From the IMG/VR virus record IMGVR_UViG_3300032291_002405, positions 1-64,000 of that record: a DNA stretch of 64,000 nt; one strand, 5' to 3'. The DNA is from a virus. Both the position numbers and the translations under genes were made by a program. Shown in pieces: positions 11,707 to 56,439 of this stretch; position 1 is the stretch's first letter; every line of letters begins with the position of its first letter. The notes under the pieces are model-generated. The model was given only the letters and a program-made list of their open reading frames with translations, made no database searches and had not been told where the DNA came from.

Positions 11707-11726
11707 AGGTTAGAATTTTCTAACCT
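11707..11726 (-). terminator. terminator overlapping the methyltransferase stop
   Basis: AGGTTAGAA/TTCTAACCT hairpin followed by a run of seven Ts on the minus strand; the stop codon at 11710-11712 lies inside the stem. Confidence 0.75.
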
Positions 11727-12594
11727 CTTTTAATTCAAGTTCTATTTGTGATAATTTTGCCCGATAATTGGATATTCGTTGATTTGCTGTATTAGTATAG
11801 TCTTCACTTAATTCAATACCAATCCATTTCCGACCTAAAAATTCTGCCGAAAGTGCCGTGGTCCCCGAACCCATGAATGGGTCCATTACGATATCTTCTT
11901 TGAATGATAATATTTTAATCGCCTTGGTTGGTATATCCATTGAAAATGTCGCCTTGGTTAATGGTCTTGAATCATTTAGATACTTCCACTGACCAAATAC
12001 CAACTCCATAAATTCTTTCTTGTCATTATCATCATAAATCGTTTTATTTCTAAAAAATGCAGGATTATCCTTATCCGCAACTTGACCCGATTCACCAACC
12101 CATTGAGGTGTACCTTTATTTATTTTTTTTGGTTGTTCTTTATAAGCAATTAAAATACACTCTTTCGGATTATAAATATAAGGTTGACTAGGACTCATCC
12201 AACTTCCCCACGCAGTTGTTTTACTCCTATGCGGACTATCTTCTTCAAGGTCAACAATCCCAAACCATTTATAACCAATTTTTTTCATAATGTTCCATAT
12301 TTCTGAAACAATAAAAACTCTACCACCTCTATCTTTAAGATTAATTTCATATGGAATATTAAGTGCAATTCTACCATCAGATTTCAGAACTCTAAAAGCA
12401 GATGTAAGCCATTCTTCACTGAATTTTAAATATTCATCAATATACATTTCATCATCATGTACGTCATATTTAATACCTACACCGTAAGGACAACTGGTTA
12501 CAATTAAATCAATACATCTTTCTTCCATCTCATTCATTACCGTCCGGCAATCACCATTAATTATTGTATTTGTAATACTCTCTAAATTTCTCAT
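11710..12594 (-). CDS. site-specific DNA methyltransferase (TSCPY type)
   Basis: 294 residues. Beta-class amino-methyltransferase order: catalytic TSCPYG (33-38) before the SAM-binding DPFMGSGTT (near residue 240). This order occurs in N4-cytosine and some N6-adenine enzymes; the central Cys in place of Pro is a common variant. The start overlaps the 3' end of the LAGLIDADG gene by 38 bp. No cognate nuclease is adjacent, so it may protect phage DNA from host restriction. Confidence 0.85.
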   Translation of the reverse strand: MRNLESITNTIINGDCRTVMNEMEERCIDLIVTSCPYGVGIKYDVHDDEMYIDEYLKFSEEWLTSAFRVLKSDGRIALNIPYEINLKDRGGRVFIVSEIWNIMKKIGYKWFGIVDLEEDSPHRSKTTAWGSWMSPSQPYIYNPKECILIAYKEQPKKINKGTPQWVGESGQVADKDNPAFFRNKTIYDDNDKKEFMELVFGQWKYLNDSRPLTKATFSMDIPTKAIKILSFKEDIVMDPFMGSGTTALSAEFLGRKWIGIELSEDYTNTANQRISNYRAKLSQIELELKEVRKF

Positions 12595-13357
12595 ATTTTT
12601 CTTTTTTTCTTTCTAAATAAATTGTTGCGTTTTTATAAATGTAATTATAAAATTTGAGATTTCCTAATTTATCTTGTATATGTAGTGAAATATTAGAATA
12701 ACACTTAATATCAATATCATTTTCTTTTAATATTTCAATTATTTGGTTTCTAAATTTTTCCGAAACACATAGTAAAGAAGTATGAGGTCTCAATGTTTTT
12801 AAATCGAATGAAAAACATCCATCACCATCAAAAAATCCTCTAATGAAATGATTCATATATTCTTTATCAATATTAGGAAATTCTATTGTAAATGTTTTCC
12901 TTGAGTGTATACCTTGTTGTTTGATTGAATTGACCAAACTATTAGAATATATGGCCAAATAACACATATGGGATTCTGAAAACCCTGATTTATACTTAAC
13001 TTTATTAAAAGATTCCTTGATTTTATGATTAGAACCTATAGAATTTCTGAATTTTTTCAAATGTTCTATGTCTTTTATTGATAGTTTCATTTCTAATGAA
13101 TTACCACTCTTTCTTTCTCTTATATAACCATCGGCATATAAAAATCCAAGCCAATAAGAACTTTCTTGATTATCAATTATGTTAAAATAATTATTGTTTA
13201 CAACGTGTCTTCTATTTGTTAAATTAAATCCATTTGATTTAAGAACCCGTATAATGGGTGTTATTGACACATTAAAATATTTCGCAACTTTATGAATACT
13301 TTTCAATTCATTATATTGACTTATAACATCACACTCATTTAATAATAACTTCCCCAT
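12557..13357 (-). CDS. free-standing LAGLIDADG homing endonuclease
   Basis: 266 residues with two LAGLIDADG motifs: WLGFLYADGY (69-78) and HFIRGFFDGDG (170-180), each with an acidic catalytic Asp, so it should act as a monomer. Residues 10-50 form a helix-turn-helix that may add DNA specificity. The C-terminal NATIYLERKKEKY resembles the C-terminus of the remnant at 28198. Class B-like box (TATTTATTA, 13360-13368) 2 bp before the ATG. It lies between guanylate kinase and a methyltransferase; no intron or intein boundary is visible around it. Confidence 0.9.
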   Translation of the reverse strand: MGKLLLNECDVISQYNELKSIHKVAKYFNVSITPIIRVLKSNGFNLTNRRHVVNNNYFNIIDNQESSYWLGFLYADGYIRERKSGNSLEMKLSIKDIEHLKKFRNSIGSNHKIKESFNKVKYKSGFSESHMCYLAIYSNSLVNSIKQQGIHSRKTFTIEFPNIDKEYMNHFIRGFFDGDGCFSFDLKTLRPHTSLLCVSEKFRNQIIEILKENDIDIKCYSNISLHIQDKLGNLKFYNYIYKNATIYLERKKEKYEKFREYYKYNN

Positions 13358-35815: not shown

Positions 35816-36371
35816 AGTTGAACTTTTCTAATAAATATACGAAGTTGAATGCTGGCGACAAATCAGTATACTCATAATAAAAATTACTACGATTTAATAT
35901 ACCTTCAAATGTTTCTAAATTGTCTAATTTCGTATTATGTCCGATGAATTTTTTAGGGATATTGTGGGTTTCACAAATGATATTACACAAATTAACCAAT
36001 GTTTCCATTTGTTCATCAGTATATAAATCCCAAAAAAATTTTTGTCTCCATTTTCTTTCTTTTATTTTACCATCAACTTTTTGATTTAACCAATTTGAAT
36101 ACGTTGGTGATAATACGTCTTTATCAACCCATCCGAGATTTTCCAAAGAAACTATTATTGATTGGTTATTTAAGGTGTCATCATGAAAAAAATTTGTAAC
36201 TTTATTTTCATCACATATTTTTACATTGGTACCATCTTTTAAAATAACATAATGGGGTAACTTATCGTAAACCCCATTATATCTATATTCTATGGATTTT
36301 AAATAATCCTCCCCCTTTCTTGATGTGTGGGTTAAAATTATTTGTTTTTTTTGGTGAAATTCATTCATCAT
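35808..36371 (-). CDS. endolysin, N-acetylmuramoyl-L-alanine amidase (Amidase_2-like)
   Basis: 187 residues. Cuts the amide bond between muramic acid and the stem peptide to release virions. THTSRKG (H15 as first zinc ligand), PHYVILKDGTNV and FIGHNT (second His) match the Amidase_2/T7-lysozyme pattern, and SLENLGW lies between them. No signal peptide, so it needs a holin. Spanin-like genes follow and a multi-pass membrane protein precedes it with an 11 bp overlap, forming a lysis cassette. Confidence 0.75.
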   Translation of the reverse strand: MMNEFHQKKQIILTHTSRKGEDYLKSIEYRYNGVYDKLPHYVILKDGTNVKICDENKVTNFFHDDTLNNQSIIVSLENLGWVDKDVLSPTYSNWLNQKVDGKIKERKWRQKFFWDLYTDEQMETLVNLCNIICETHNIPKKFIGHNTKLDNLETFEGILNRSNFYYEYTDLSPAFNFVYLLEKFNYE

Positions 36372-37332
36372 TTTTATTGTACACCAATCTGTTTATTTGA
36401 TGATTATCCCCCAAAATAGGCTCATCATCCACAAAGTATATAGGGTCAGGTTCCGGTGTTGGTTTTGGTGTCGTCTCAGGTGTTGGTTTTGGTGTCGTCT
36501 CAGGTGTCGTCTCAGGTGTTGGTTCCGGTGTCGTCTCAGGTGTCGTCTCAGGTGTTGGTTCCGGTGTCGTCTCAGGTGTCGTCTCAGGTGTTGGTTCCGG
36601 TGTCGTCTCAGGTGTTGGTTCCGGTGTTAAATTATTTTGATTATAATTACGCTCAAATAATTCTTGAAGTTTTTTCAAATCATCTTCTGTTGGAACATAT
36701 GGTTTATATTTTTCATCCCTTTCTCTTTCCATAGCACCATATTTCTTAGATATCTCATCCAAATCAATTTCGGTAATTGTATCATCTTCGGTCGCTGTTT
36801 GTTCGATAATTACGTCTTGATTAGATTGAGGTTCTTCAGATATTACTGTTTGTTGATTGTTTTCTTTAAGTTTATTTGAATAAACAATTAACATGTGTGC
36901 AAATGTCAATGAGATAAAAGGTAACAGTCCACCAGTAAAGAAAGCTAATAAAGTTCTATGACTTGTCGGATTTTGAGAATCCATACCCAATGGCTCTAAA
37001 ATGGGACCAATCATATCCATCCAATCTTTAAACTCTTTTGAGTTGATATTAATCCATGTATATGAGAAAAAGAAGTTACCTAATAACTGAATAAATGTCA
37101 CAATCCCAAACGGGATATATATGAATTTACCGAATTTAGCCGATACTCCTGCCAATGCTGCCAATGCAGCAACTTCAACCGCAACTGATAAATAAATGGA
37201 CCATGTTATTGGATTTGCCAAATTATAAAAAGTCGTAACGTGTGAAATCGATACAAAAGCGACCAATAAAATTGGTATTAGAAAACTACCAATTATAATA
37301 CCATTTAAGTTCTTGGATAACCAATTTTTCAT
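36361..37332 (-). CDS. multi-pass membrane protein with Thr-Pro-Glu repeats
   Basis: 323 residues. Four predicted membrane segments (about 10-30, 40-62, 67-90 and 128-150), then an acidic linker and a 90-residue repeat region built on PEPTPETTPET units, ending in a short acidic tail. It overlaps the endolysin gene by 11 bp and follows a membrane-anchored coiled-coil gene by 1 bp. A holin or lysis regulator is possible from position, but four passes plus a long tail are unusual for a holin. Confidence 0.55.
   Translation of the reverse strand: MKNWLSKNLNGIIIGSFLIPILLVAFVSISHVTTFYNLANPITWSIYLSVAVEVAALAALAGVSAKFGKFIYIPFGIVTFIQLLGNFFFSYTWININSKEFKDWMDMIGPILEPLGMDSQNPTSHRTLLAFFTGGLLPFISLTFAHMLIVYSNKLKENNQQTVISEEPQSNQDVIIEQTATEDDTITEIDLDEISKKYGAMERERDEKYKPYVPTEDDLKKLQELFERNYNQNNLTPEPTPETTPEPTPETTPETTPEPTPETTPETTPEPTPETTPETTPKPTPETTPKPTPEPDPIYFVDDEPILGDNHQINRLVYNKNDE
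36445..36630 (-). repeat. tandem repeat encoding Thr-Pro-Glu
   Basis: Units of 12-36 bp built from GGTGTCGTCTCA and GGTGTTGGTTCC (plus-strand reading) repeat in frame over about 185 bp inside the membrane-protein gene. Near-identical copies suggest recent expansion and probable length variation. Confidence 0.75.
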
Positions 37333-39553: not shown

Positions 39554-39576
39554 AAAACCCCTTTCGGGGTTTTTTT
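39552..39576. terminator. bidirectional terminator
   Basis: AAAAAACCCC-TTTC-GGGGTTTTTT: a perfect hairpin with A and T tracts on both sides, overlapping both the plus-strand stop (39551-39553) and the minus-strand stop (39575-39577). It ends the gp46 operon and the gene at 39044. Confidence 0.9.
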
Positions 39577-41794
39577 ATTGAATCACTTTAGAAACATTAT
39601 CGGTTTTCTCAATTCTAACAACTGAGTTGGCCCACTGACCTACTAATGGATTGTGTGTTATCACAAATATTCTTTCAAAGTAATCTTTAATCTTACTGAA
39701 GAAATCACCAACCATTTCAAGATTTTCATTTGAAATTTTACCGAATACTTCATCGAAAACAATTATATTTGGTTTTGGTAATGAACATATCTTACTTAAT
39801 ACTGCTCTTAATGCCAGTGATGCAATTGTTCTTTCAAATCCTGAACCGCTAACCATAAGTTTTTCAATACCTGTTGAATTATCAATCATTACAAATTCAA
39901 CTTCATTTTTTTCACTTATTCTAACCTCGAGCTTAAATAAAGCACTATCTTGAAGTAATCTTTGTAGTTCCTCATTTATTAACGGCATCATTGTTTTCAT
40001 AATCATCTTAGAAATTCCGTTTTTACCGTAGATTTCAAGATAAGACTTATATATTTTTTCTTTTTCGAATTCCTGAGCAATTAAAGATATTTTATCATAC
40101 TTCGAATTAATGTCTCGTTCAGAATTTTGAATCATGGTATTGTTATAAGATATTTTAGAAACGTGTTCGGACTTTTCTTTCTCAATCTCATTAATTCTTA
40201 AATTAGCTTTAATTATTTTTTCTTCAATACTCTTATTTTTTTCAATCTTATCTTGAACTTCATGATATCTTTTTAAAGTATCTTGTGCTCTTTCTAATTT
40301 TAACTTTTCAGCCTCAAGAGTTAATTCGTACTTTTCACGAACTAATTTATTTCTTTCATATTCATAAAAATCTTTCTTAAGTTGAACAAAAAATTCTTCT
40401 TTGCCGTTTAACTCATGCCTTATCGATGTTTTTTGTTCTTTTTGTATGATATATCCGTCAAGTTCGGCGATTTTTGCATTTGTAATCGCCGCGTTCATTA
40501 ACTCAATTCCACAATGTTCACATTTGATTCCACCTTCAACTGAAGATTTTAAACGATTGATTGACGATATTTCCGTGTCTATTTTAACTATTTCACGATA
40601 AACCTCATTGATTTCTTCTTTAATTTTATCATGCTGGTCTTCATGATAATATTCTTTCGGTTCAACAACAACAACTTCGTTTATTTTCTTTTTAAGGTCG
40701 GATATTTTTAAATTAATATCTGAAATTGTCGATTCAAGATTTCTTGGATTTAAAATTAATAATTCATGGTCGATATCCGTATATTTTTGACCAATTAAAT
40801 CTTCTTTAAATTTTTTACCGGTTTCAAGTTTTTCATCAGATTCTTTAATACTATTTTCTAAGTTAAAAATGGAAACCTTATAATCATTAATCTTAGTAAC
40901 CAAATCATTGATTTCATTTTTTAATGTTTCAGTATTATAAACATTTGAAATCATGGACTTACTAAATGTTGAATATAACTCTTTACCCGCCTCTTCCTTT
41001 CTCTTAAGAAATTCTAAACCTAAAAACCTTGATAATACCTGTCCACGAGCTGTTGGTTTAGAATCAATTAAATCTTCAAGATTGGATGCTGTTGTTAAAA
41101 TAGTCATCAAAAAATCATCAATGTTACCTATCGAATTTTTGATAAAGCTTTCAGTTTCTCTTCTTTGTTCACCTGTGAAATTTTGTAATTGACCATCAGG
41201 TAACTTTTTAAAGAAATCCAATTCCGTCTTTACATTCCATTCTCCCGACTTTGATTTCTTTCTGGTTATTTGTCTAACCAAAATATAATCTTCACCGTCA
41301 ATGGTAATTTCACCTCTAACAGATACTTTATCCTTATCGGTAAATCTATTAAAAATTTCCTCGGCTTTAGATGTTTTAGTCGTTGTATTAAAAAATAAAA
41401 ACAGTAATAAATCTACTGTTAATACTGTGTTGTGTGAAACAATTCCATTACTATAATATTGATGTACCTCAGCAACTTGAATATCATATAGAGTATCTTT
41501 TTCCCCTAATATCTGAATATTAGTTACTGAACTATCCCCTTCCTTTGTTTGTATTTTATCACCTGTCTTAATATCTTTAAGTACAACAAATTCATTGTCT
41601 GTTTTTTTCAATCTATGGTAATCAGCACCTTCAACAAACATACCATTATCCAATTCACACCTATAAACATCGGCATTTTTTTCAGTTATACCGCACCATT
41701 CAATATTTTTATACCCATACGGTGTGTTAACTTTAAACCCTAAATCACCGTATTTTTGGTATAATTCGTACAATTCTTCAATTTTAATTTTCAT
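39575..41794 (-). CDS. gp46: gp46-like (SbcC/Rad50) ATPase, C-part, with split-intein C-fragment at its N-terminus
   Basis: 739 residues. Residues 1-122 are an intein C-part: IKTGDKIQ (block B/F region) and the terminal block G VSHN (119-122). T123 is the +1 residue and completes Walker A. The extein (123-739) reads TVLTVDLLLFLFF, a long coiled coil interrupted by a zinc-hook KCEHC, then the ABC signature MVSGSGFERTIASLALRA, Walker B IIVFDEVFG and an H-loop VITHNP. It supplies the second half of the recombination nuclease ATPase, partner of gp47 (44606). It overlaps the homing-endonuclease gene by 11 bp. Without splicing, the protein lacks a P-loop lysine. Confidence 0.9.
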   Translation of the reverse strand: MKIKIEELYELYQKYGDLGFKVNTPYGYKNIEWCGITEKNADVYRCELDNGMFVEGADYHRLKKTDNEFVVLKDIKTGDKIQTKEGDSSVTNIQILGEKDTLYDIQVAEVHQYYSNGIVSHNTVLTVDLLLFLFFNTTTKTSKAEEIFNRFTDKDKVSVRGEITIDGEDYILVRQITRKKSKSGEWNVKTELDFFKKLPDGQLQNFTGEQRRETESFIKNSIGNIDDFLMTILTTASNLEDLIDSKPTARGQVLSRFLGLEFLKRKEEAGKELYSTFSKSMISNVYNTETLKNEINDLVTKINDYKVSIFNLENSIKESDEKLETGKKFKEDLIGQKYTDIDHELLILNPRNLESTISDINLKISDLKKKINEVVVVEPKEYYHEDQHDKIKEEINEVYREIVKIDTEISSINRLKSSVEGGIKCEHCGIELMNAAITNAKIAELDGYIIQKEQKTSIRHELNGKEEFFVQLKKDFYEYERNKLVREKYELTLEAEKLKLERAQDTLKRYHEVQDKIEKNKSIEEKIIKANLRINEIEKEKSEHVSKISYNNTMIQNSERDINSKYDKISLIAQEFEKEKIYKSYLEIYGKNGISKMIMKTMMPLINEELQRLLQDSALFKLEVRISEKNEVEFVMIDNSTGIEKLMVSGSGFERTIASLALRAVLSKICSLPKPNIIVFDEVFGKISNENLEMVGDFFSKIKDYFERIFVITHNPLVGQWANSVVRIEKTDNVSKVIQ
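41429..41794 (-). other. split-intein C-fragment (122 residues)
   Basis: Begins with the gene's own start MKIKIEELYELYQKYG, which parallels the end of block A of atypically split inteins such as AceL-TerL, continues with a beta-rich Hint fold, and ends in the invariant His-Asn followed by Thr+1. The fragment is far longer than the 35-45 residues of classical C-inteins, so the split lies near the N-terminus. Confidence 0.85.
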
Positions 41795-42794
41795 TTTTTA
41801 AAAATTTTAAACATTTTTTTATTACTTTTTCTTTATCTTTTTTGTATTCGGAATCCCATATAACTAAAACATCAAACATATGTTTATTTGCAAGCTCAAT
41901 CTTAGTATTGTCCTTTTTCCATATATCTTCGGATGTAATATTCTTACGAAAAGGGTTTGGGGTTTCACTTATTGTGTAAATTTTTGGATTGGCGTGGTAA
42001 TTATCACCATTATATTCAATAATTTTTTTATTTAATAAATCGGTAAAATCATACCGATAAAATCCATCATTATCTGTTAACACAAACTCACCCCCTTTTT
42101 TAGCAAACATTATATAATTCAATTCCTCAATATTTTTATAATATTTTAACAACTCAAAAAATAAGTCTTGCGACACTTTGGAATATCCAGATTTTAAATT
42201 ACCATTCTTATATAGCGATTCTTGCCATTTTTTTTGTCTTTCGTTGAATATTTTTTTTCCATCTTTTTTACCATATTTTTCAATACATTTAATCAAACTA
42301 AACTTATTCTGACCTTCAGATACTTTCTTTTTTGACTCATCATTAGAGAACCCTCGACTTATCCAATATTCAACACGTCTTGGTGAATTTAATATACCTT
42401 CTTTAATTTTTTTTTCTCTAAATAATTTTATACCTTCCAATTCACCGTATTTAATAATAAAAGCCCTTTCAGTATTCATTAAATGAAGTTCAGTCTTTAA
42501 TTTAGATTCCTCAATTGAAAACCCTCGACTTAACCAATATTCAACAAAATTCGGTTTCATCTCTTTAACTTTCAATTTAGCATTTTCTTCACTCAATCCT
42601 CTTTCAACCCAATATTTAACACTAAATGCCGACCCTTTAATAATTTTAACGTCATTATCTTGTAGTCTTTTTATAACAACAGAATTATCGACGTTATATT
42701 TTTCAGAAATAAATCTAGTTGATTTCATTTCATTTACATACAAATTAATCATATCGTTAATTTGACTTTCACTAAAGTTATAAACTTTTCCCAT
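41784..42794 (-). CDS. free-standing homing endonuclease, EDxHD/Vsr-like
   Basis: 336 residues from the ATG at 42794, preceded by AAAAAGG; a start 17 codons upstream is less likely. Residues 6-48 are a helix-turn-helix, then three YWxxRGxS repeats (61-68, 86-93, 143-150) that probably bind DNA. The nuclease domain has RYDF (248-251) and IIEYNGDNYH (258-267), the signature of the Vsr-like homing endonucleases found in fractured genes, and ends with VLVIWDSEY. It lies exactly between the two gp46 halves and would cut an uninterrupted gp46 allele to spread the fracture. Confidence 0.85.
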   Translation of the reverse strand: MGKVYNFSESQINDMINLYVNEMKSTRFISEKYNVDNSVVIKRLQDNDVKIIKGSAFSVKYWVERGLSEENAKLKVKEMKPNFVEYWLSRGFSIEESKLKTELHLMNTERAFIIKYGELEGIKLFREKKIKEGILNSPRRVEYWISRGFSNDESKKKVSEGQNKFSLIKCIEKYGKKDGKKIFNERQKKWQESLYKNGNLKSGYSKVSQDLFFELLKYYKNIEELNYIMFAKKGGEFVLTDNDGFYRYDFTDLLNKKIIEYNGDNYHANPKIYTISETPNPFRKNITSEDIWKKDNTKIELANKHMFDVLVIWDSEYKKDKEKVIKKCLKFLKNEN

Positions 42795-42805
42795 AACCTT
42801 TTTAA

Positions 42806-42814
42806 TTATAAATA
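42806..42814 (-). promoter_or_regulatory. class B box TATTTATAA before the endonuclease gene
   Basis: TATTTATAA on the minus strand, 11 bp before the ATG at 42794. The endonuclease and downstream gp46 C-part could thus be expressed separately from the N-part. Confidence 0.4.
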
Positions 42815-42850
42815 TAACCGTCAAACTAAAAAGGTAATGAGACAATGTTA

Positions 42851-43411
42851 CTATTTTAACTCATCAGGTAAAAATCCCAACTTATTTATTATATAATCAA
42901 TATCAAAATCAATTTCAATATCCGTATTACCTCTAACGCATTTTCCACCAAAATTAGGAGGATTGGATTCAACAACAGTTATACCATTACACTTTTCAAA
43001 ATCCAACACTTGATTATCACCATACGATAGAAAATTACCAAATTCAATTTTCTTTATATACCATTTTTTAAATGCTGTTACCTCCTCATCGTTTATTTTT
43101 GCTTCAACAGCATTGTCTAAATCGATAACTTGTTCATAGATATTTTCCTGACCTTTTTGTTTTAAAAGTTCTTTTAATAATTCTACTTGATAATTTCGGT
43201 CCATAATGTTTAACGAAACATCTACAGTTTGTTGAACATCTTTCGATGTTTTAACTTTTGTTAAAACGTTAACATTTGTTGAATTATATTTTTTTGAAAA
43301 ATAATTTCGAATACTTTTAACCCTTTCTTGCGTAAAGTTTTCAGCGTTATCTTCCCATACAACTTGTATATATGGATTTTCTATTTTAGATACATCTAAC
43401 TTATGTTCCAT
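42851..43411 (-). CDS. gp46: gp46-like (SbcC/Rad50) ATPase, N-part, with split-intein N-fragment at its C-terminus
   Basis: 186 residues from the ATG at 43411. The frame also allows an ATG at 43453, but that overlaps the upstream gene and encodes a Pro-rich segment that looks like its shadow. An N-terminal extension of about 110 residues precedes the SMC/Rad50 head strand IKKIEFGNFLSYGDNQVLDF. The P-loop region SNPPNFGGK then breaks off at C158, the first residue of a 29-residue intein N-part (CVRGNTDIEIDFD...). The stop follows directly. Walker A is therefore interrupted between Lys and Ser/Thr, a favoured intein site. Confidence 0.9.
   Translation of the reverse strand: MEHKLDVSKIENPYIQVVWEDNAENFTQERVKSIRNYFSKKYNSTNVNVLTKVKTSKDVQQTVDVSLNIMDRNYQVELLKELLKQKGQENIYEQVIDLDNAVEAKINDEEVTAFKKWYIKKIEFGNFLSYGDNQVLDFEKCNGITVVESNPPNFGGKCVRGNTDIEIDFDIDYIINKLGFLPDELK
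42854..42940 (-). other. split-intein N-fragment (29 residues)
   Basis: Starts with the catalytic Cys (codon 42938-42940) immediately after GGK. CVRGNTDIEI fits intein block A (Cys-hydrophobic-x-Gly-x-Thr). At 29 residues it is among the short N-fragments of atypically split inteins; the last 15 or so residues are helical and may mediate fragment association. Confidence 0.85.
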
Positions 43412-43415
43412 ATAC

Positions 43416-43622
43416 TTATAATTCGGTGTTGGTGGTGGGTTGAACAAGTCCATTATTTTCTGTATCACCTGACGATTTCACGTATTCTTCGTGCATATCT
43501 TTCAAGTGTTTAATTAATGTTTCATTATACAATGTTTGCATTTTCTTTGCTTCTTGTTGTCTCGTTTGATTTCTTTGAGCAACTTTCTTCTTGTGATTTT
43601 TTCTATTTCTTGATACTGGCAT
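43416..43622 (-). CDS. small basic protein
   Basis: 68 residues from the ATG at 43622 (MPVSRNRKNHKKK...). The first 25 residues are strongly basic, then a helix (QTLYNETLIKHLKDMHEEY) and a polar tail. Family not recognised. It sits directly upstream of gp46-N in the recombination operon; nucleic-acid binding is plausible from charge. Confidence 0.55.
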   Translation of the reverse strand: MPVSRNRKNHKKKVAQRNQTRQQEAKKMQTLYNETLIKHLKDMHEEYVKSSGDTENNGLVQPTTNTEL

Positions 43623-43979: not shown

Positions 43980-44606
43980 TTATTTATATAAATTGTCCCC
44001 TAAGTTTGATGACCGTAAATAAACCGCAGATTTTTCTTGTGATTTATTCAGTTGGTCTATTTGTTCTTTTAATTGTTTTATCTCATTATCTTTTTCACGA
44101 ATCTTACCCATCAATGTCTGTACTGTTTGTTGTAGTTGTTGAGTTCTATCATCGTCTAATTTTGGTGTATTTTGGAAAATTTTTTCCATTTCTTGGTTTT
44201 TAGTGGAAAATTCTCTCTTTTCATTTTCCAACTCTTGTATTTTTAACAATAATTCACTGTTGTCAGTTTTGTCGTAAATTTTTACTATTTTTTCGACAGG
44301 TATTTCCTTAACCACTTCAACAATTTTATCAACCGGTACCTCTTTTACAACCTCAACAATCTTTTCAACAATAACTTCTTTTATTACTTCAACAGGTATT
44401 TCCACCCGTTTTTCACGAATAACCTCCTTTTCCACCCATTTTTCTTGTTCTCCACCCATTTTTCCTAAAAGTCCGTATTTTTCAATATTGTATCCCGTCT
44501 TTAAACTTTTTTTCAAAACTTTATCGAAATCAACATTATTTAACTCACAAAACTTTTTAATGTCTTGTAATTCATAATCCGTAATATTAATTTCAACTTT
44601 TCCCAT
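43980..44606 (-). CDS. coiled-coil protein with VEK repeats and RHH-like N-terminus
   Basis: 208 residues. Residues 1-45 resemble a ribbon-helix-helix/CopG-like unit (VEINITDYELQDIKKF). Residues 60-108 are short repeats of the type IPVEVIKEV and EKIVEVVKEV. A coiled coil rich in Gln follows (110-195). It shares one base with the gp47 gene, so it may be a structural partner of the gp46/47 complex, which is inference. Confidence 0.6.
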   Translation of the reverse strand: MGKVEINITDYELQDIKKFCELNNVDFDKVLKKSLKTGYNIEKYGLLGKMGGEQEKWVEKEVIREKRVEIPVEVIKEVIVEKIVEVVKEVPVDKIVEVVKEIPVEKIVKIYDKTDNSELLLKIQELENEKREFSTKNQEMEKIFQNTPKLDDDRTQQLQQTVQTLMGKIREKDNEIKQLKEQIDQLNKSQEKSAVYLRSSNLGDNLYK

Positions 44607-45388
44607 TAATAATTCTTTAATTTTTCAGAACCCGATTCTATAACCGAATAATCGTCAATGTTGAACACCAAGAATGGTTTTGAATTGTGTAAATCAACAA
44701 ATTCATATTTATCAGAACTCACATCATAAATTCCATATCCGTGATTCCTTACACTTTCCCCGAAGTTATGTTGAATGATTGACCCCACCATATACGCCTT
44801 CTTCTTATTGGGGATATCAAATACTTGTCGCTTATGAATATCACCACAAAACACAACGTCACAACCCATAAAACGATGTGTATCAAACCCTTCTTCAAAT
44901 TTGTACCCAATATCCGTAGTAAGTCCAACAATTGGACCGTGGAATAACCCAATTTTAATGTTGTCGGAATTCGGGTCAATATCCGGAGTAATGTTATGGT
45001 CCATAAGTGAATAAACCACCCAATCAATATTTTCATCTTTATATACACCTCTGTTTTTATAATAATAAATGTATTCATTCTTAAGAGAACCAATAATTGG
45101 TGTCAATGCATCCAATCTTGACATATTGTTTTCCAAAAAGTCATGATTACCAATGATAACAATTGTTTTTGCAATCTTAGAACATTCTGTTAGTACCCAT
45201 GAAACCATTTCAATAAGTTCGGGTGTCATTTGATTTTTTGAATGTACTAAATCACCAGTAAAAACAATTCGGTCAGGAGCAATTTCACCCCACTGCTTAA
45301 ACATATCTTCAAGAATTGATTTATACAATTCATGGTCTTTAAACATACGAATATGTAAGTCAGAAAAATGTACTATTTTATTAATCAT
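44606..45388 (-). CDS. gp47: gp47-like (SbcD/Mre11) recombination nuclease
   Basis: 260 residues. Mn-dependent phosphoesterase nuclease subunit that pairs with gp46 to resect DNA ends for recombination-dependent replication. All metal-binding motifs are intact: FSDLHI (D10, H12), FTGDLVHS, IGNHDFLEN, FHGP, and CGDIHKRQ. The C-terminal capping domain is short, as in T4 gp47 (about 340 residues) or shorter. It lies in the same operon as the split gp46. Confidence 0.9.
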   Translation of the reverse strand: MINKIVHFSDLHIRMFKDHELYKSILEDMFKQWGEIAPDRIVFTGDLVHSKNQMTPELIEMVSWVLTECSKIAKTIVIIGNHDFLENNMSRLDALTPIIGSLKNEYIYYYKNRGVYKDENIDWVVYSLMDHNITPDIDPNSDNIKIGLFHGPIVGLTTDIGYKFEEGFDTHRFMGCDVVFCGDIHKRQVFDIPNKKKAYMVGSIIQHNFGESVRNHGYGIYDVSSDKYEFVDLHNSKPFLVFNIDDYSVIESGSEKLKNY

Positions 45389-54387: not shown

Positions 54388-56439
54388 TTAATAAATTAAA
54401 AATTCTTCATCTTCTGTTGATAAATAGTCACCATCTTCGGTTAATATATAATCACCAAGACCATCATAACATTCGTTACAATTATCAAATACATCTAAAA
54501 TTGTATTTAAGGTTAATGTTGGGCTTTGGTTATTAACTCTTCCATTGTAAGTAAAACAATATGTGTTACCATTAACATTTGCGGATATCACATTTCCAAT
54601 TTCCGCAATTGTCCCACCTGTACTTCTCATTGTATGTGAAACATAATATATTTGACCACTAACACATTCTGTTATTTGTCTAACAAAATTACAATTAAAT
54701 TCAGTATCTATTATTGTGAATGTTGTCACACCAGAAATACCGAAGTTTCGTTGAATTGCAGGAGTTCCTGACGGTGTTGGTGTCGGTGTCGGTGTTACGG
54801 TATTAATAATAGTTAAATTAACATTAACGGTAGCACAGGGATTGATAAACACACTTGGAGTAACCGTAGGTGTTGGTGTTACCGTTTTTGTTGGTGTAAC
54901 TGTTGGTGTTACCGTTTTTGTTGGTGTTACTGTTGGTGTTACCGTTTTTGTTGGTGTTACTGTTGGTGTCGGACATGGTCCTACCGTCCAAATATTTTCA
55001 TCAATATCCGGACAATTTGAAAAACAAGGTGTTTTTCCATTTAAAATACAATTACCAATTAAACTATCACTTAAACACCACGAAACCCCATTATAAAAAA
55101 CAACACCTGATACACTACCAACATAATATTCCCTACCATTATAAGTCCCAAATGATGTATAATTACCACTATAATTAGTATATCCGTCTAAGTTCAATGA
55201 TAGACAATAATTGTCAGGACAATCCGATATTACGGGTGTCGATGTAACTGATGGTGTAACAGTATTTGTGGGTACCGGTGTTGGTGTTTCACCGTAACAA
55301 GAACCATTATTAATAATTGTGACTGTTGCCGGTGCAATTATTGAATCATTACATGCACAAATATCATAAACCTGTTGGGGTCCAAGACTTATTGATTGCT
55401 CATTACCATAACAATCTGTAAAACTCACAAAGACAAATTCATCCGTATTTGTGTTTGTTAAATTATAAGAAATACACGTACAAAAAACAGAACTTGGTGT
55501 TACTGTATTTGTTGGTGTAACTGTTGGTGTTACCGTTTTTGTTGGTGTTACTGTTGGTGTTACTGTTGGTGTGGGTGTAGGTGTGGGTGTAGGTGTGGGT
55601 GTAGGTGTGGGACTTACAACACTAACACAGGCCGAACAACCAGTATAAGGACCATTCGTCGATATTGAACTATAAACCGTACCGATTCCCGAATATGTAA
55701 CAACTGTTGCACATCCATTGAAACCGTCAGTTTGAACATTATATGTATCACCAGTATTTAATGTGCTGCCAGTAACATCTTTTAAAACAAAAACTTCAAA
55801 TGGTGATGAACACCCACTCATTTGATATACAGGAGAACAAGGTGTTTCACCTATACAGGCCGAACAACCAGTATATGATACAATCCCATTTAATTGATAT
55901 TGTGTTCCAACACCTGAAAAAGGTACAACTTGTGCACATTCACTTGAGCTATCTATAAAGATGTTTAATGTTGTTGTTCCTGCACTTAAATTAATTATAT
56001 TTCCGCCACTACCACTTGTGGTTCCTGTGTAATACGCTTGGTAAACTTCATGCGGCTCACAACATCCCGAAAATTGTCGATTTACATTTATGTCAAAAAA
56101 TAAATCGTAATTAGAATTTAACAATAAAGTACCTACGGTACCTGTCGGTCCAGAAACATTAACCGAATAATATACCGTTAATCCACTATAATTCTTATTA
56201 AAACTATTTACCGTGTATGATGTGTTAACAGCACCACCGGATATTGTCATCGTAATGGTTTCACCAGACAATAAATAATTGATAAGTGCGTCATAACTTA
56301 TTGAATTATTAACAACTGAAATCCAACTATTTTGGTTAAATGTTACTAAATTTACACCGCCTGAGTTTGCGTCATTGGTTGTAAAGTAACCATTGGTTAA
56401 ATAAGCCGTCGACCCACTATATTTATAATTTCTAAACAT
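54388..56439 (-). CDS. appendage protein with Pro-Thr repeats
   Basis: 683 residues. Cys-containing beta modules (for example CIGETPCSPVYQMSGCSSPF) alternate with low-complexity linkers such as PTPTPTPTPTVTPTVTP (about 278-316) and PTKTVTPTVTP (about 493-530). The layout of folded heads on rigid, possibly O-glycosylated stalks fits a fibre. Neighbouring glycosyltransferases make glycosylation of the Thr-rich stalks plausible. TATTTATTA lies 6 bp before the start. Confidence 0.65.
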   Translation of the reverse strand: MFRNYKYSGSTAYLTNGYFTTNDANSGGVNLVTFNQNSWISVVNNSISYDALINYLLSGETITMTISGGAVNTSYTVNSFNKNYSGLTVYYSVNVSGPTGTVGTLLLNSNYDLFFDINVNRQFSGCCEPHEVYQAYYTGTTSGSGGNIINLSAGTTTLNIFIDSSSECAQVVPFSGVGTQYQLNGIVSYTGCSACIGETPCSPVYQMSGCSSPFEVFVLKDVTGSTLNTGDTYNVQTDGFNGCATVVTYSGIGTVYSSISTNGPYTGCSACVSVVSPTPTPTPTPTPTPTPTVTPTVTPTKTVTPTVTPTNTVTPSSVFCTCISYNLTNTNTDEFVFVSFTDCYGNEQSISLGPQQVYDICACNDSIIAPATVTIINNGSCYGETPTPVPTNTVTPSVTSTPVISDCPDNYCLSLNLDGYTNYSGNYTSFGTYNGREYYVGSVSGVVFYNGVSWCLSDSLIGNCILNGKTPCFSNCPDIDENIWTVGPCPTPTVTPTKTVTPTVTPTKTVTPTVTPTKTVTPTPTVTPSVFINPCATVNVNLTIINTVTPTPTPTPSGTPAIQRNFGISGVTTFTIIDTEFNCNFVRQITECVSGQIYYVSHTMRSTGGTIAEIGNVISANVNGNTYCFTYNGRVNNQSPTLTLNTILDVFDNCNECYDGLGDYILTEDGDYLSTEDEEFLIY
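54855..54970 (-). repeat. 30-bp tandem repeat encoding PTVTPTKTVT
   Basis: Nearly identical 30-bp units (GGTGTTACCGTTTTTGTT, plus strand) repeat about four times; a related stretch lies at 55495-55612. Likely to vary in copy number. Confidence 0.75.
55495..55612 (-). repeat. Pro-Thr coding repeat
   Basis: Second Pro-Thr tract of the same gene, ending in GTAGGTGTGG-type 12-bp units. Confidence 0.7.

What the first reader, a model, noticed from the sequence alone, without database searches (positions are those of the whole stretch)
39575..43411. Fractured gp46 (SbcC/Rad50) gene joined by an atypically split intein
Seen: the gene ending at 42851 stops 29 codons after a Cys that directly follows GGK of the P-loop. 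The gene starting at 41794 encodes 122 residues ending in His-Asn, then Thr-Val-Leu-Thr, which restores Walker A as GGK-T. The N-part carries the first strand of the ATPase head; the C-part carries zinc hook, signature, Walker B and H-loop. Known: fractured genes with split inteins are described for phage helicase, reductase and terminase genes, and short N-fragments define atypical split inteins such as AceL-TerL. I do not recall one in gp46. Inference: the two chains trans-splice to a working ATPase, making gp46/47 activity depend on splicing.
Basis: partly seen in the sequence, partly recalled or inferred. Interest (0 to 1): 0.93.

Follow-up and report, generated by a model that had tools for sequence, protein, structure and literature searches.

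The report
Phage repair gene rejoined by split intein
A large phage keeps its DNA-repair ATPase (gp46, the phage Rad50/SbcC) as two separate genes with a DNA-cutting "selfish" gene wedged between them, and the two protein halves almost certainly join themselves through a split intein; relatives show empty, split, endonuclease-free and contiguous versions of the same site, which makes the life cycle of split inteins directly testable.

Summary
On the minus strand gp46 is broken inside Walker A (GGK|T). The N-half ends in a 29-residue intein start (Cys1), the C-half begins with a 122-residue intein end (..SHN|T). This is a "fractured gene" with an atypically split, VidaL-like class 1 intein. A contiguous relative models as a Hint fold (pLDDT 96; VidaL 6vgv and NrdJ-1 nearest).

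Many close relatives have an uninterrupted gp46. About 22 other gp46 sequence types carry the intein at the same codon boundary, in several states: split with Vsr-like endonuclease, split with a short scar, split with another small ORF, and contiguous. One scar is a 23-nt remnant of the endonuclease gene. Synonymous differences cluster at the insertion, as expected of homing by gene conversion. Contigs of 320-362 kb hold no second gp46, and both intein halves are under purifying selection, so trans-splicing is very probably required for gp46. Splicing itself was not shown.

The kind is known; the host gene appears new, and natural re-fusion of a split intein is likely but unproven.

The parts
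42941..43411 (-). gp46 N-extein (157 aa from ATG; in-frame GTG at 43468), ending in Walker A up to GGK
   Evidence: ORF and translation; PHROG_77 profile positions 203-329; 72-79% identical to the same region of uninterrupted gp46 genes in L001-L007
42941..42967 (-). Walker A, N-side part SNPPNFGGK; Thr of the motif lies on the other chain
   Evidence: uninterrupted relatives read GGKT across the same point
42854..42940 (-). IntN, 29 aa, CVRGNTDIEIDFDIDYIINKLGFLPDELK; stop codon 42851-42853
   Evidence: 76-86% identical in L070, L072, L083, L086; strand 7-11 and helix 14-21 of the Hint model
42808..42835 (-). Conserved spacer element ACCTTTTTAGTTTGACGGTTATATTTAT between IntN stop and endonuclease start; function unknown
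   Evidence: only match in the window, 0.02 expected; exact pattern in 25 fetched loci; alignment
41784..42794 (-). Free-standing homing endonuclease gene, 336 aa: N-terminal HTH-like region, YW..RG.S.EEA repeats, C-terminal Vsr/EDxHD-like nuclease domain (D248, E259, D263, H266 in the numbering)
   Evidence: PHROG_22677 E 1e-21; alignment A2; VIA-align 1cw0 Vsr Z 11.5 and 3r3p I-Bth0305I Z 10.2
41429..41794 (-). IntC, 122 aa, from Met to block G ..YYSNGIVSHN
   Evidence: TIGR01443 above cut-off; Pfam Intein_splicing 18.9 bits alone, 30.5 joined to IntN, under the 35.8 cut-off; VidaL profile match E 5e-11
39575..41428 (-). gp46 C-extein, 617 aa plus stop, starting with Thr+1 (TVLTVD..); zinc hook, signature, Walker B, H-loop
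   Evidence: PHROG_77 E 5e-39; motif positions; 62-72% identical to uninterrupted gp46
44606..45388 (-). gp47 (SbcD/Mre11-like nuclease), partner of gp46, upstream in the same gene run
   Evidence: PHROG_100 E 6e-25, Pfam Metallophos E 2e-11

Best explanation
A mobile fractured-gene element sits in the P-loop codons of phage gp46. It consists of an atypically split class 1 intein of the VidaL type (29 + 122 residues) and, between the halves, an EDxHD/Vsr-type homing endonuclease gene. The N- and C-halves of gp46 are made separately. IntN docks on IntC to complete the Hint fold, and Cys1, His121, Asn122 (IntC numbering) and Thr+1 drive trans-splicing that rejoins GGK to T and restores Walker A, so gp46/gp47 ATPase-nuclease activity depends on splicing. 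The endonuclease is inferred to cut uninterrupted gp46 alleles at this spot, so that repair copies the whole cassette in. Shown here: anatomy, fold, conserved residues, allele series, the endonuclease-gene scar, clustered flanking synonymous changes, purifying selection, no second gp46 in long relatives. Inferred: splicing, endonuclease target, dependence of gp46 on splicing.
For: Intein profiles: TIGR01443 23.5 bits over cut-off; joining IntN to IntC raises Pfam Intein_splicing from 18.9 to 30.5 bits. Hint model of the contiguous allele L089 has pLDDT 96.2; Foldseek rank 1 is VidaL 6vgv (E 9e-11, TM 0.82), and VIA Z is 21 for NrdJ-1 and VidaL. Cys1, block B His, C-terminal His-Asn and +1 Thr/Ser are kept in all 31 aligned alleles. 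Uninterrupted relatives join N- and C-extein exactly at GGK|T. Every intein-bearing record tested has only the N and C matches, three of them 320-362 kb long. Endonuclease: Vsr and I-Bth0305I fold. Mobility: WIN and L155 share 71% extein but 49% intein; WIN and L127 share 34% extein but 76% intein; 14 empty/intein changes on the extein tree; differences between L122 and the 98%-identical empty L061 cluster at the insertion and all but one changed codon are synonymous. In the allele pairs where it could be computed, dN/dS is 0.04-0.36 for intein halves and endonuclease; L139/L141 are too alike to tell.
Against: No splicing, expression or cleavage data. Block B lacks the usual Thr (GADYH), although the aligned VidaL stretch reads CAFNH and shares this. 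Pfam Intein_splicing stays under its curated cut-off. Sequence similarity to Vsr is very low (profile E 0.13; Foldseek E 0.14-0.2). The window's own record is 66 kb and may be a fragment, so a second gp46 there is excluded only by analogy with longer relatives.
Confidence: 0.92

Rival explanations
1. The two halves assemble without splicing: the intein pieces act as a dimerisation clamp and gp46 works as a two-chain ATPase with a broken P-loop.
For: Some phage proteins work in two pieces after an endonuclease gene insertion: a split ribonucleotide reductase is described in PMC10448857.
Against: All splicing residues are kept in 31 alleles. The cut lies between Lys and Thr of Walker A, where a backbone break is hard to tolerate. 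At least two gp46 alleles are contiguous and would need cis-splicing.
Confidence: 0.04
2. gp46 is a dead, fragmented pseudogene here and another nuclease replaces it.
For: Only the two fragments are seen in a 66-kb record.
Against: dN/dS is 0.04-0.20 on N-exteins and 0.05-0.18 on C-exteins where computable; motifs are intact; the same split state recurs in many contigs; no other gp46 copy in 320-362 kb contigs.
Confidence: 0.02
3. Assembly artefact joining two alleles or strains.
For: Metagenomic origin.
Against: The same split architecture occurs in separate close contigs (L072, L083-L085 from three assemblies, L086, L070) and many distant ones. Contiguous alleles are each present in two separate contigs (L087/L088 and L089/L091).
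Confidence: 0.01
4. About direction only: the contiguous alleles are ancestral and splitting happened repeatedly, rather than split alleles being re-fused.
For: The AU test does not formally reject all gp46 splits as one clade apart from fused L130 and L132 (p 0.065); an asymmetric two-state model is indifferent to the root state.
Against: Nearly all split halves end at the same residue (..ELK*) and restart at the same Met; homologous endonucleases fill the gap; fused alleles are scattered (4 changes) with different joints; L157 keeps ELK and the IntC start MKKIITI internally; an equal-rates model favours a split root by 2.65 lnL units.
Confidence: 0.3

Closest known systems
Fractured genes (Dassa et al. 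2009, NAR 37:2560; paper not held, cited in PMC12350094 and PMC10448857)
   Same: Host gene broken at the intein, each half carrying half an intein, free-standing homing endonuclease between them, EDxHD/Vsr endonuclease family
   Different: Host gene is gp46 (SbcC/Rad50), reported in no paper that I found; the allele set at one site includes empty, scarred and contiguous states
VidaL split intein (PDB 6vgv, 6vgw)
   Same: Nearest solved intein by sequence profile (E 5e-11 to 9e-13) and by Foldseek; the IntC start aligns with VidaL residue 24, so the split region is alike; non-canonical AxxH block B
   Different: Only about 26% identity; gp46 IntN is 29 aa with an extra helix before the split, while VidaL's IntN is shorter (about 16 aa, from memory)
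AceL-TerL and PolB16 OarG atypically split inteins
   Same: Short IntN (about 15-25 aa, PMC11923092 and PMC10189870) and long IntC
   Different: PolB16 OarG is a Ser1/Ser+1 intein; AceL-TerL, as recalled, breaks after the strand that follows the first hairpin, whereas this one breaks before it
AceL NrdHF fractured gene (PMC7891396)
   Same: Fractured gene with an intervening homing endonuclease (GIY-YIG), as in our relative L121/L154
   Different: Class 3 intein split at the usual position (98+48 aa)
Vsr endonuclease (1cw0) and homing endonuclease I-Bth0305I (3r3p)
   Same: C-terminal nuclease domain fold, Z 11.5 and 10.2
   Different: 14-22% identity; the long N-terminal repeat region has no match beyond a helix-turn-helix-like start

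Membership tests
Fractured gene with split intein | Host gene in two ORFs, each carrying one part of an intein at the break | tested here: met
Fractured gene with split intein | Free-standing homing endonuclease gene in the break | tested here: met
   336-aa ORF between the halves; nuclease fold match; homing activity itself not testable
Fractured gene with split intein | Relatives with an uninterrupted gene at the exact spliced junction | tested here: met
   78 of the 80 loci; junction shown
Class 1 intein (Hint domain) | Hint fold | tested here: met
   model of a contiguous allele, pLDDT 96; VidaL and NrdJ-1 VIA Z 21
Class 1 intein (Hint domain) | Cys/Ser at position 1, penultimate His, terminal Asn, +1 Cys/Ser/Thr | tested here: met
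   C1, H121-N122 of IntC, T+1 in the window; kept in 31 alleles
Class 1 intein (Hint domain) | Block B TxxH (usual, not universal) | tested here: inconclusive
   His kept, Thr absent: window clade has AxxH (GADYH); the VidaL stretch aligned also lacks Thr (CAFNH); several related inteins have S/T-xx-H
Class 1 intein (Hint domain) | Splices | not testable with these tools
   needs expression
Atypically split (short IntN) intein | Short IntN with a long IntC | tested here: met
   29 + 122 aa; slightly over the 15-25 aa range given in PMC11923092
gp46/SbcC/Rad50 | Walker A, zinc hook CxxC, signature, Walker B, H-loop; gp47 neighbour | tested here: met
   Walker A is complete only after splicing
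EDxHD/Vsr homing endonuclease | Vsr-like nuclease fold with conserved acidic and His residues | tested here: met
   Z 11.5 to 1cw0, 10.2 to 3r3p; D248, E259 and H266 invariant and D263 nearly invariant in 14 sequences
EDxHD/Vsr homing endonuclease | Cuts the empty target site | not testable with these tools
   only indirect: clustered synonymous changes next to the insertion

The most novel reading that the evidence does not exclude
Splitting of an intein is reversible in nature. At the gp46/Rad50 P-loop a split intein with an endonuclease gene in the gap loses the endonuclease, leaving short scars, and is then re-fused, at least twice with different joints, into a contiguous cis-splicing mini-intein. 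The site would thus cycle through empty, split plus endonuclease, split only, fused and empty states, and the element would ride on a gene of the recombination machinery that carries out homing.
Probability: 0.55. Interest if true: 0.75.

Novelty: new member of a known kind. Interest (0 to 1): 0.62.

Why it matters
Why split inteins exist and how they arise is known mostly from single snapshots. Here one insertion codon in one gene offers a natural allele set: empty, split with endonuclease, split with scar, other ORF in the gap, and contiguous, with a second endonuclease type in a related gene. Splicing speed, fragment affinity and the cost of each step can be compared among close relatives. 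The host gene matters too. gp46/47 resects DNA ends in recombination-dependent replication and is listed as possibly involved in homing itself in T4 (PMC2988022), so the element would make its host's break-processing enzyme depend on protein splicing. The 29-aa IntN is also short enough for chemical synthesis as a labelling tool.

Tried and rejected
Pfam PF13476 (AAA_23) gave no match in the genome; the phage protein is too divergent, PHROG_77 catches it. phmmer of an uninterrupted gp46 against PDB sequences found nothing. The cultured-phage collection holds only remote gp46 relatives at 24-30% identity. The conserved 28-nt spacer before the endonuclease was considered as a promoter, but it occurs once in the window and travels with the endonuclease, so no role is claimed. 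RNA folding of three spacers gave no shared structure. The genome-contig scan gave two remote hits only, so a cellular home is not indicated. A test that fused L130 and L132 are one clade was inconclusive (p 0.29), as was the test that all gp46 splits form one clade (p 0.065). In the fold searches, matches of the endonuclease to mitoribosome chains were set aside as generic. Three papers on fractured genes, VidaL and split-intein design are not in the library and could not be read.
Full report
What is there. On the minus strand, downstream of gp47 (44606-45388; PHROG_100) and some small ORFs, lies gp46 in two pieces. The first ORF (ATG 43411 or GTG 43468, stop 42851) carries a phage-specific N-terminal region and the first strand of the ATPase head, ending ..ESNPPNFGGK, and then 29 residues CVRGNTDIEIDFDIDYIINKLGFLPDELK. 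The last ORF (41794-39575) starts with 122 residues ending ..LYDIQVAEVHQYYSNGIVSHN and continues TVLTVDLLLF.. with zinc hook CEHC, signature, Walker B and H-loop. The two exteins match consecutive parts of PHROG_77, SbcC-like (positions 203-329 and 337-953).

The intein. The C-part alone passes the NCBIfam intein C-terminal model (23.5 bits, cut-off 15.6). Pfam Intein_splicing rises from 18.9 to 30.5 bits when the N-part is joined, still under its cut-off of 35.8. A profile of 17 IntC sequences finds VidaL (6vgv) first among solved structures (E 5e-11) and aligns IntC residue 1 with VidaL residue 24. Foldseek ranks VidaL first (E 9e-11, TM 0.82); VIA-align gives Z 21 for NrdJ-1 and VidaL. The split point falls in the loop between helix 14-21 and strand 31-33. 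Cys1, the block B His, the terminal His-Asn and Thr or Ser at +1 are present in every one of 31 aligned alleles. The window clade lacks the block B Thr (GADYH); the VidaL stretch aligned reads CAFNH and lacks it too.

The endonuclease. It belongs to PHROG_22677 (E 1e-21, no function given). Fourteen relatives keep D248, E259 and H266, with D263 nearly invariant. The C-terminal domain of its model (pLDDT about 90 there) matches Vsr endonuclease (1cw0, Z 11.5) and homing endonuclease I-Bth0305I (3r3p, Z 10.2), above generic rows; Foldseek E-values are weak (0.14-0.2), as is the profile match to Vsr (E 0.13). The EDxHD/Vsr endonuclease family was described with fractured genes by Dassa et al. 2009, as cited in PMC12350094. 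The same endonuclease family stands next to split inteins in other phage P-loop genes, which I named by reading the flanking ORFs: clamp loader (L102), terminase (L103, L105), DnaB-like helicase (L104), UvsX (L106), ClpB-like (L108).

Allele states at one site. A search with the C-extein returned 80 loci; 78 have N- and C-extein directly joined. Further scans gave about 22 other gp46 sequence types with the intein at the same codon boundary, plus seven SbcC/Rad50-like genes with related inteins at GK|S. States: split with Vsr-like endonuclease (window, L123, L124, L127, L129, L135-L138, L140, L144-L149, L155); split with a GIY-YIG endonuclease in an SbcC/Rad50-like gene (L121/L154, recognised by reading its sequence only); split with a 140-aa ORF (L139, L141); split with short gaps of 27-96 nt and no endonuclease (L122, L128, L133); contiguous (L130, L132, and in Rad50-like genes L157, L158). 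L144 and L146 carry the endonuclease plus an extra ORF related to that 140-aa ORF.

Loss of the endonuclease. The 40-nt gap of L122 contains a 23-nt exact copy of the 3' end of the endonuclease gene (L129, E 1e-8; 22/22 in L123, 21/22 in the window). L128's gap keeps a recognisable copy of the conserved spacer that precedes the endonuclease. So the endonuclease-free split state is derived by deletion in these two cases.

Mobility. The extein tree interleaves empty and intein-bearing genes (14 changes). The window's extein is nearest to empty L001 (72%) and to L155 (71%), but its intein is 49% identical to that of L155 and 76% to that of L127, whose extein is only 34% identical. L128 and L130 have 93% identical exteins but inteins of 77%, one split and one fused. 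L122 and its 98%-identical empty relative L061 differ mostly close to the insertion: differences at 1, 4, 13 and 16 nt on the left and 3-12 nt on the right, then few further out; all 14 changed codons on the left and 12 of 13 on the right are synonymous. This is what co-conversion from a diverged donor would leave. dS is lower for intein and endonuclease than for exteins in several pairs (for example L144/L146: IntC 0.55 against C-extein 1.74), though such dS values are near saturation. Where it could be computed, dN/dS is 0.04-0.36 for intein halves and endonuclease; L139/L141 are too alike to tell.

Dependence of gp46 on splicing. Neither piece has a complete Walker A. In eleven intein-bearing records (including 362, 340 and 321 kb) the only gp46 matches are the N and the C part; two uninterrupted controls show one match. 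An intact second copy is therefore unlikely, although the window's own record is only 66 kb.

Direction of split and fusion. The two gp46 contiguous alleles sit among split alleles, and four split/fused changes are needed on the intein tree. Their joints differ: PDE|ITIGEL in L130, PDEL|NEEITIGEL in L132. L157 reads NELK-KLENA-MKKIITI, with the usual end of IntN and start of IntC still visible. Nearly all split halves share the same end (ELK) and restart. This favours re-fusion. It is not proven: the AU test against all gp46 splits as one clade gives p 0.065, and the asymmetric two-state model does not choose a root.

Known and new. P-loops are known intein hot spots (PMC5874633), atypically split inteins with short IntN are known (PMC11923092, PMC10189870), and fractured genes are known (PMC7891396). 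Text searches for inteins in gp46, SbcC or Rad50 found no paper that I could see to report one, but most subscription papers are not in that library. I therefore file it as a new member of a known kind, in a new host gene, with an allele series of unusual value. The reading that splitting is reversible is the novel case.

Noticed in passing
window 12557-13357 (-) and 11710-12594 (-): A second endonuclease ORF (PHROG_4645, E 7e-47), LAGLIDADG-like by reading, overlaps the downstream DNA methylase gene by 38 nt; possibly another mobile endonuclease.
   Followed up: partly
window 42808-42835 (-) and loci L072, L114-L119, L127, L135-L138, L144-L146, L149: Conserved 28-nt spacer element ahead of the endonuclease gene, present with most copies of the Vsr-like endonuclease and partly kept in L128 and L154; possible promoter or regulatory element of the endonuclease.
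   Followed up: partly
L102, L103, L104, L105, L106, L108, L163-L165, L167, L171, L172, L180, L184: The same endonuclease family next to split inteins at other P-loops (clamp loader, terminase, DnaB, UvsX, ClpB); L104 and L184 look like genes with more than one intein.
   Followed up: no
L116 5511-6029, L119 5517-6020, L092 5573-5995: A family of 140-172 aa ORFs of unknown function in the gap of the fractured gene, with or without the endonuclease.
   Followed up: no
L202 (Treponema MAG contig JAGBBT010000023.1): A related IntC (44%) with an endonuclease-like match upstream, in a contig binned as Treponema; probably phage DNA.
   Followed up: no
window 36361-37332 (-) and 54388-56439 (-): ORFs with long TPEPTPETTP and TPTPTVTPT repeat stretches.
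   Followed up: no
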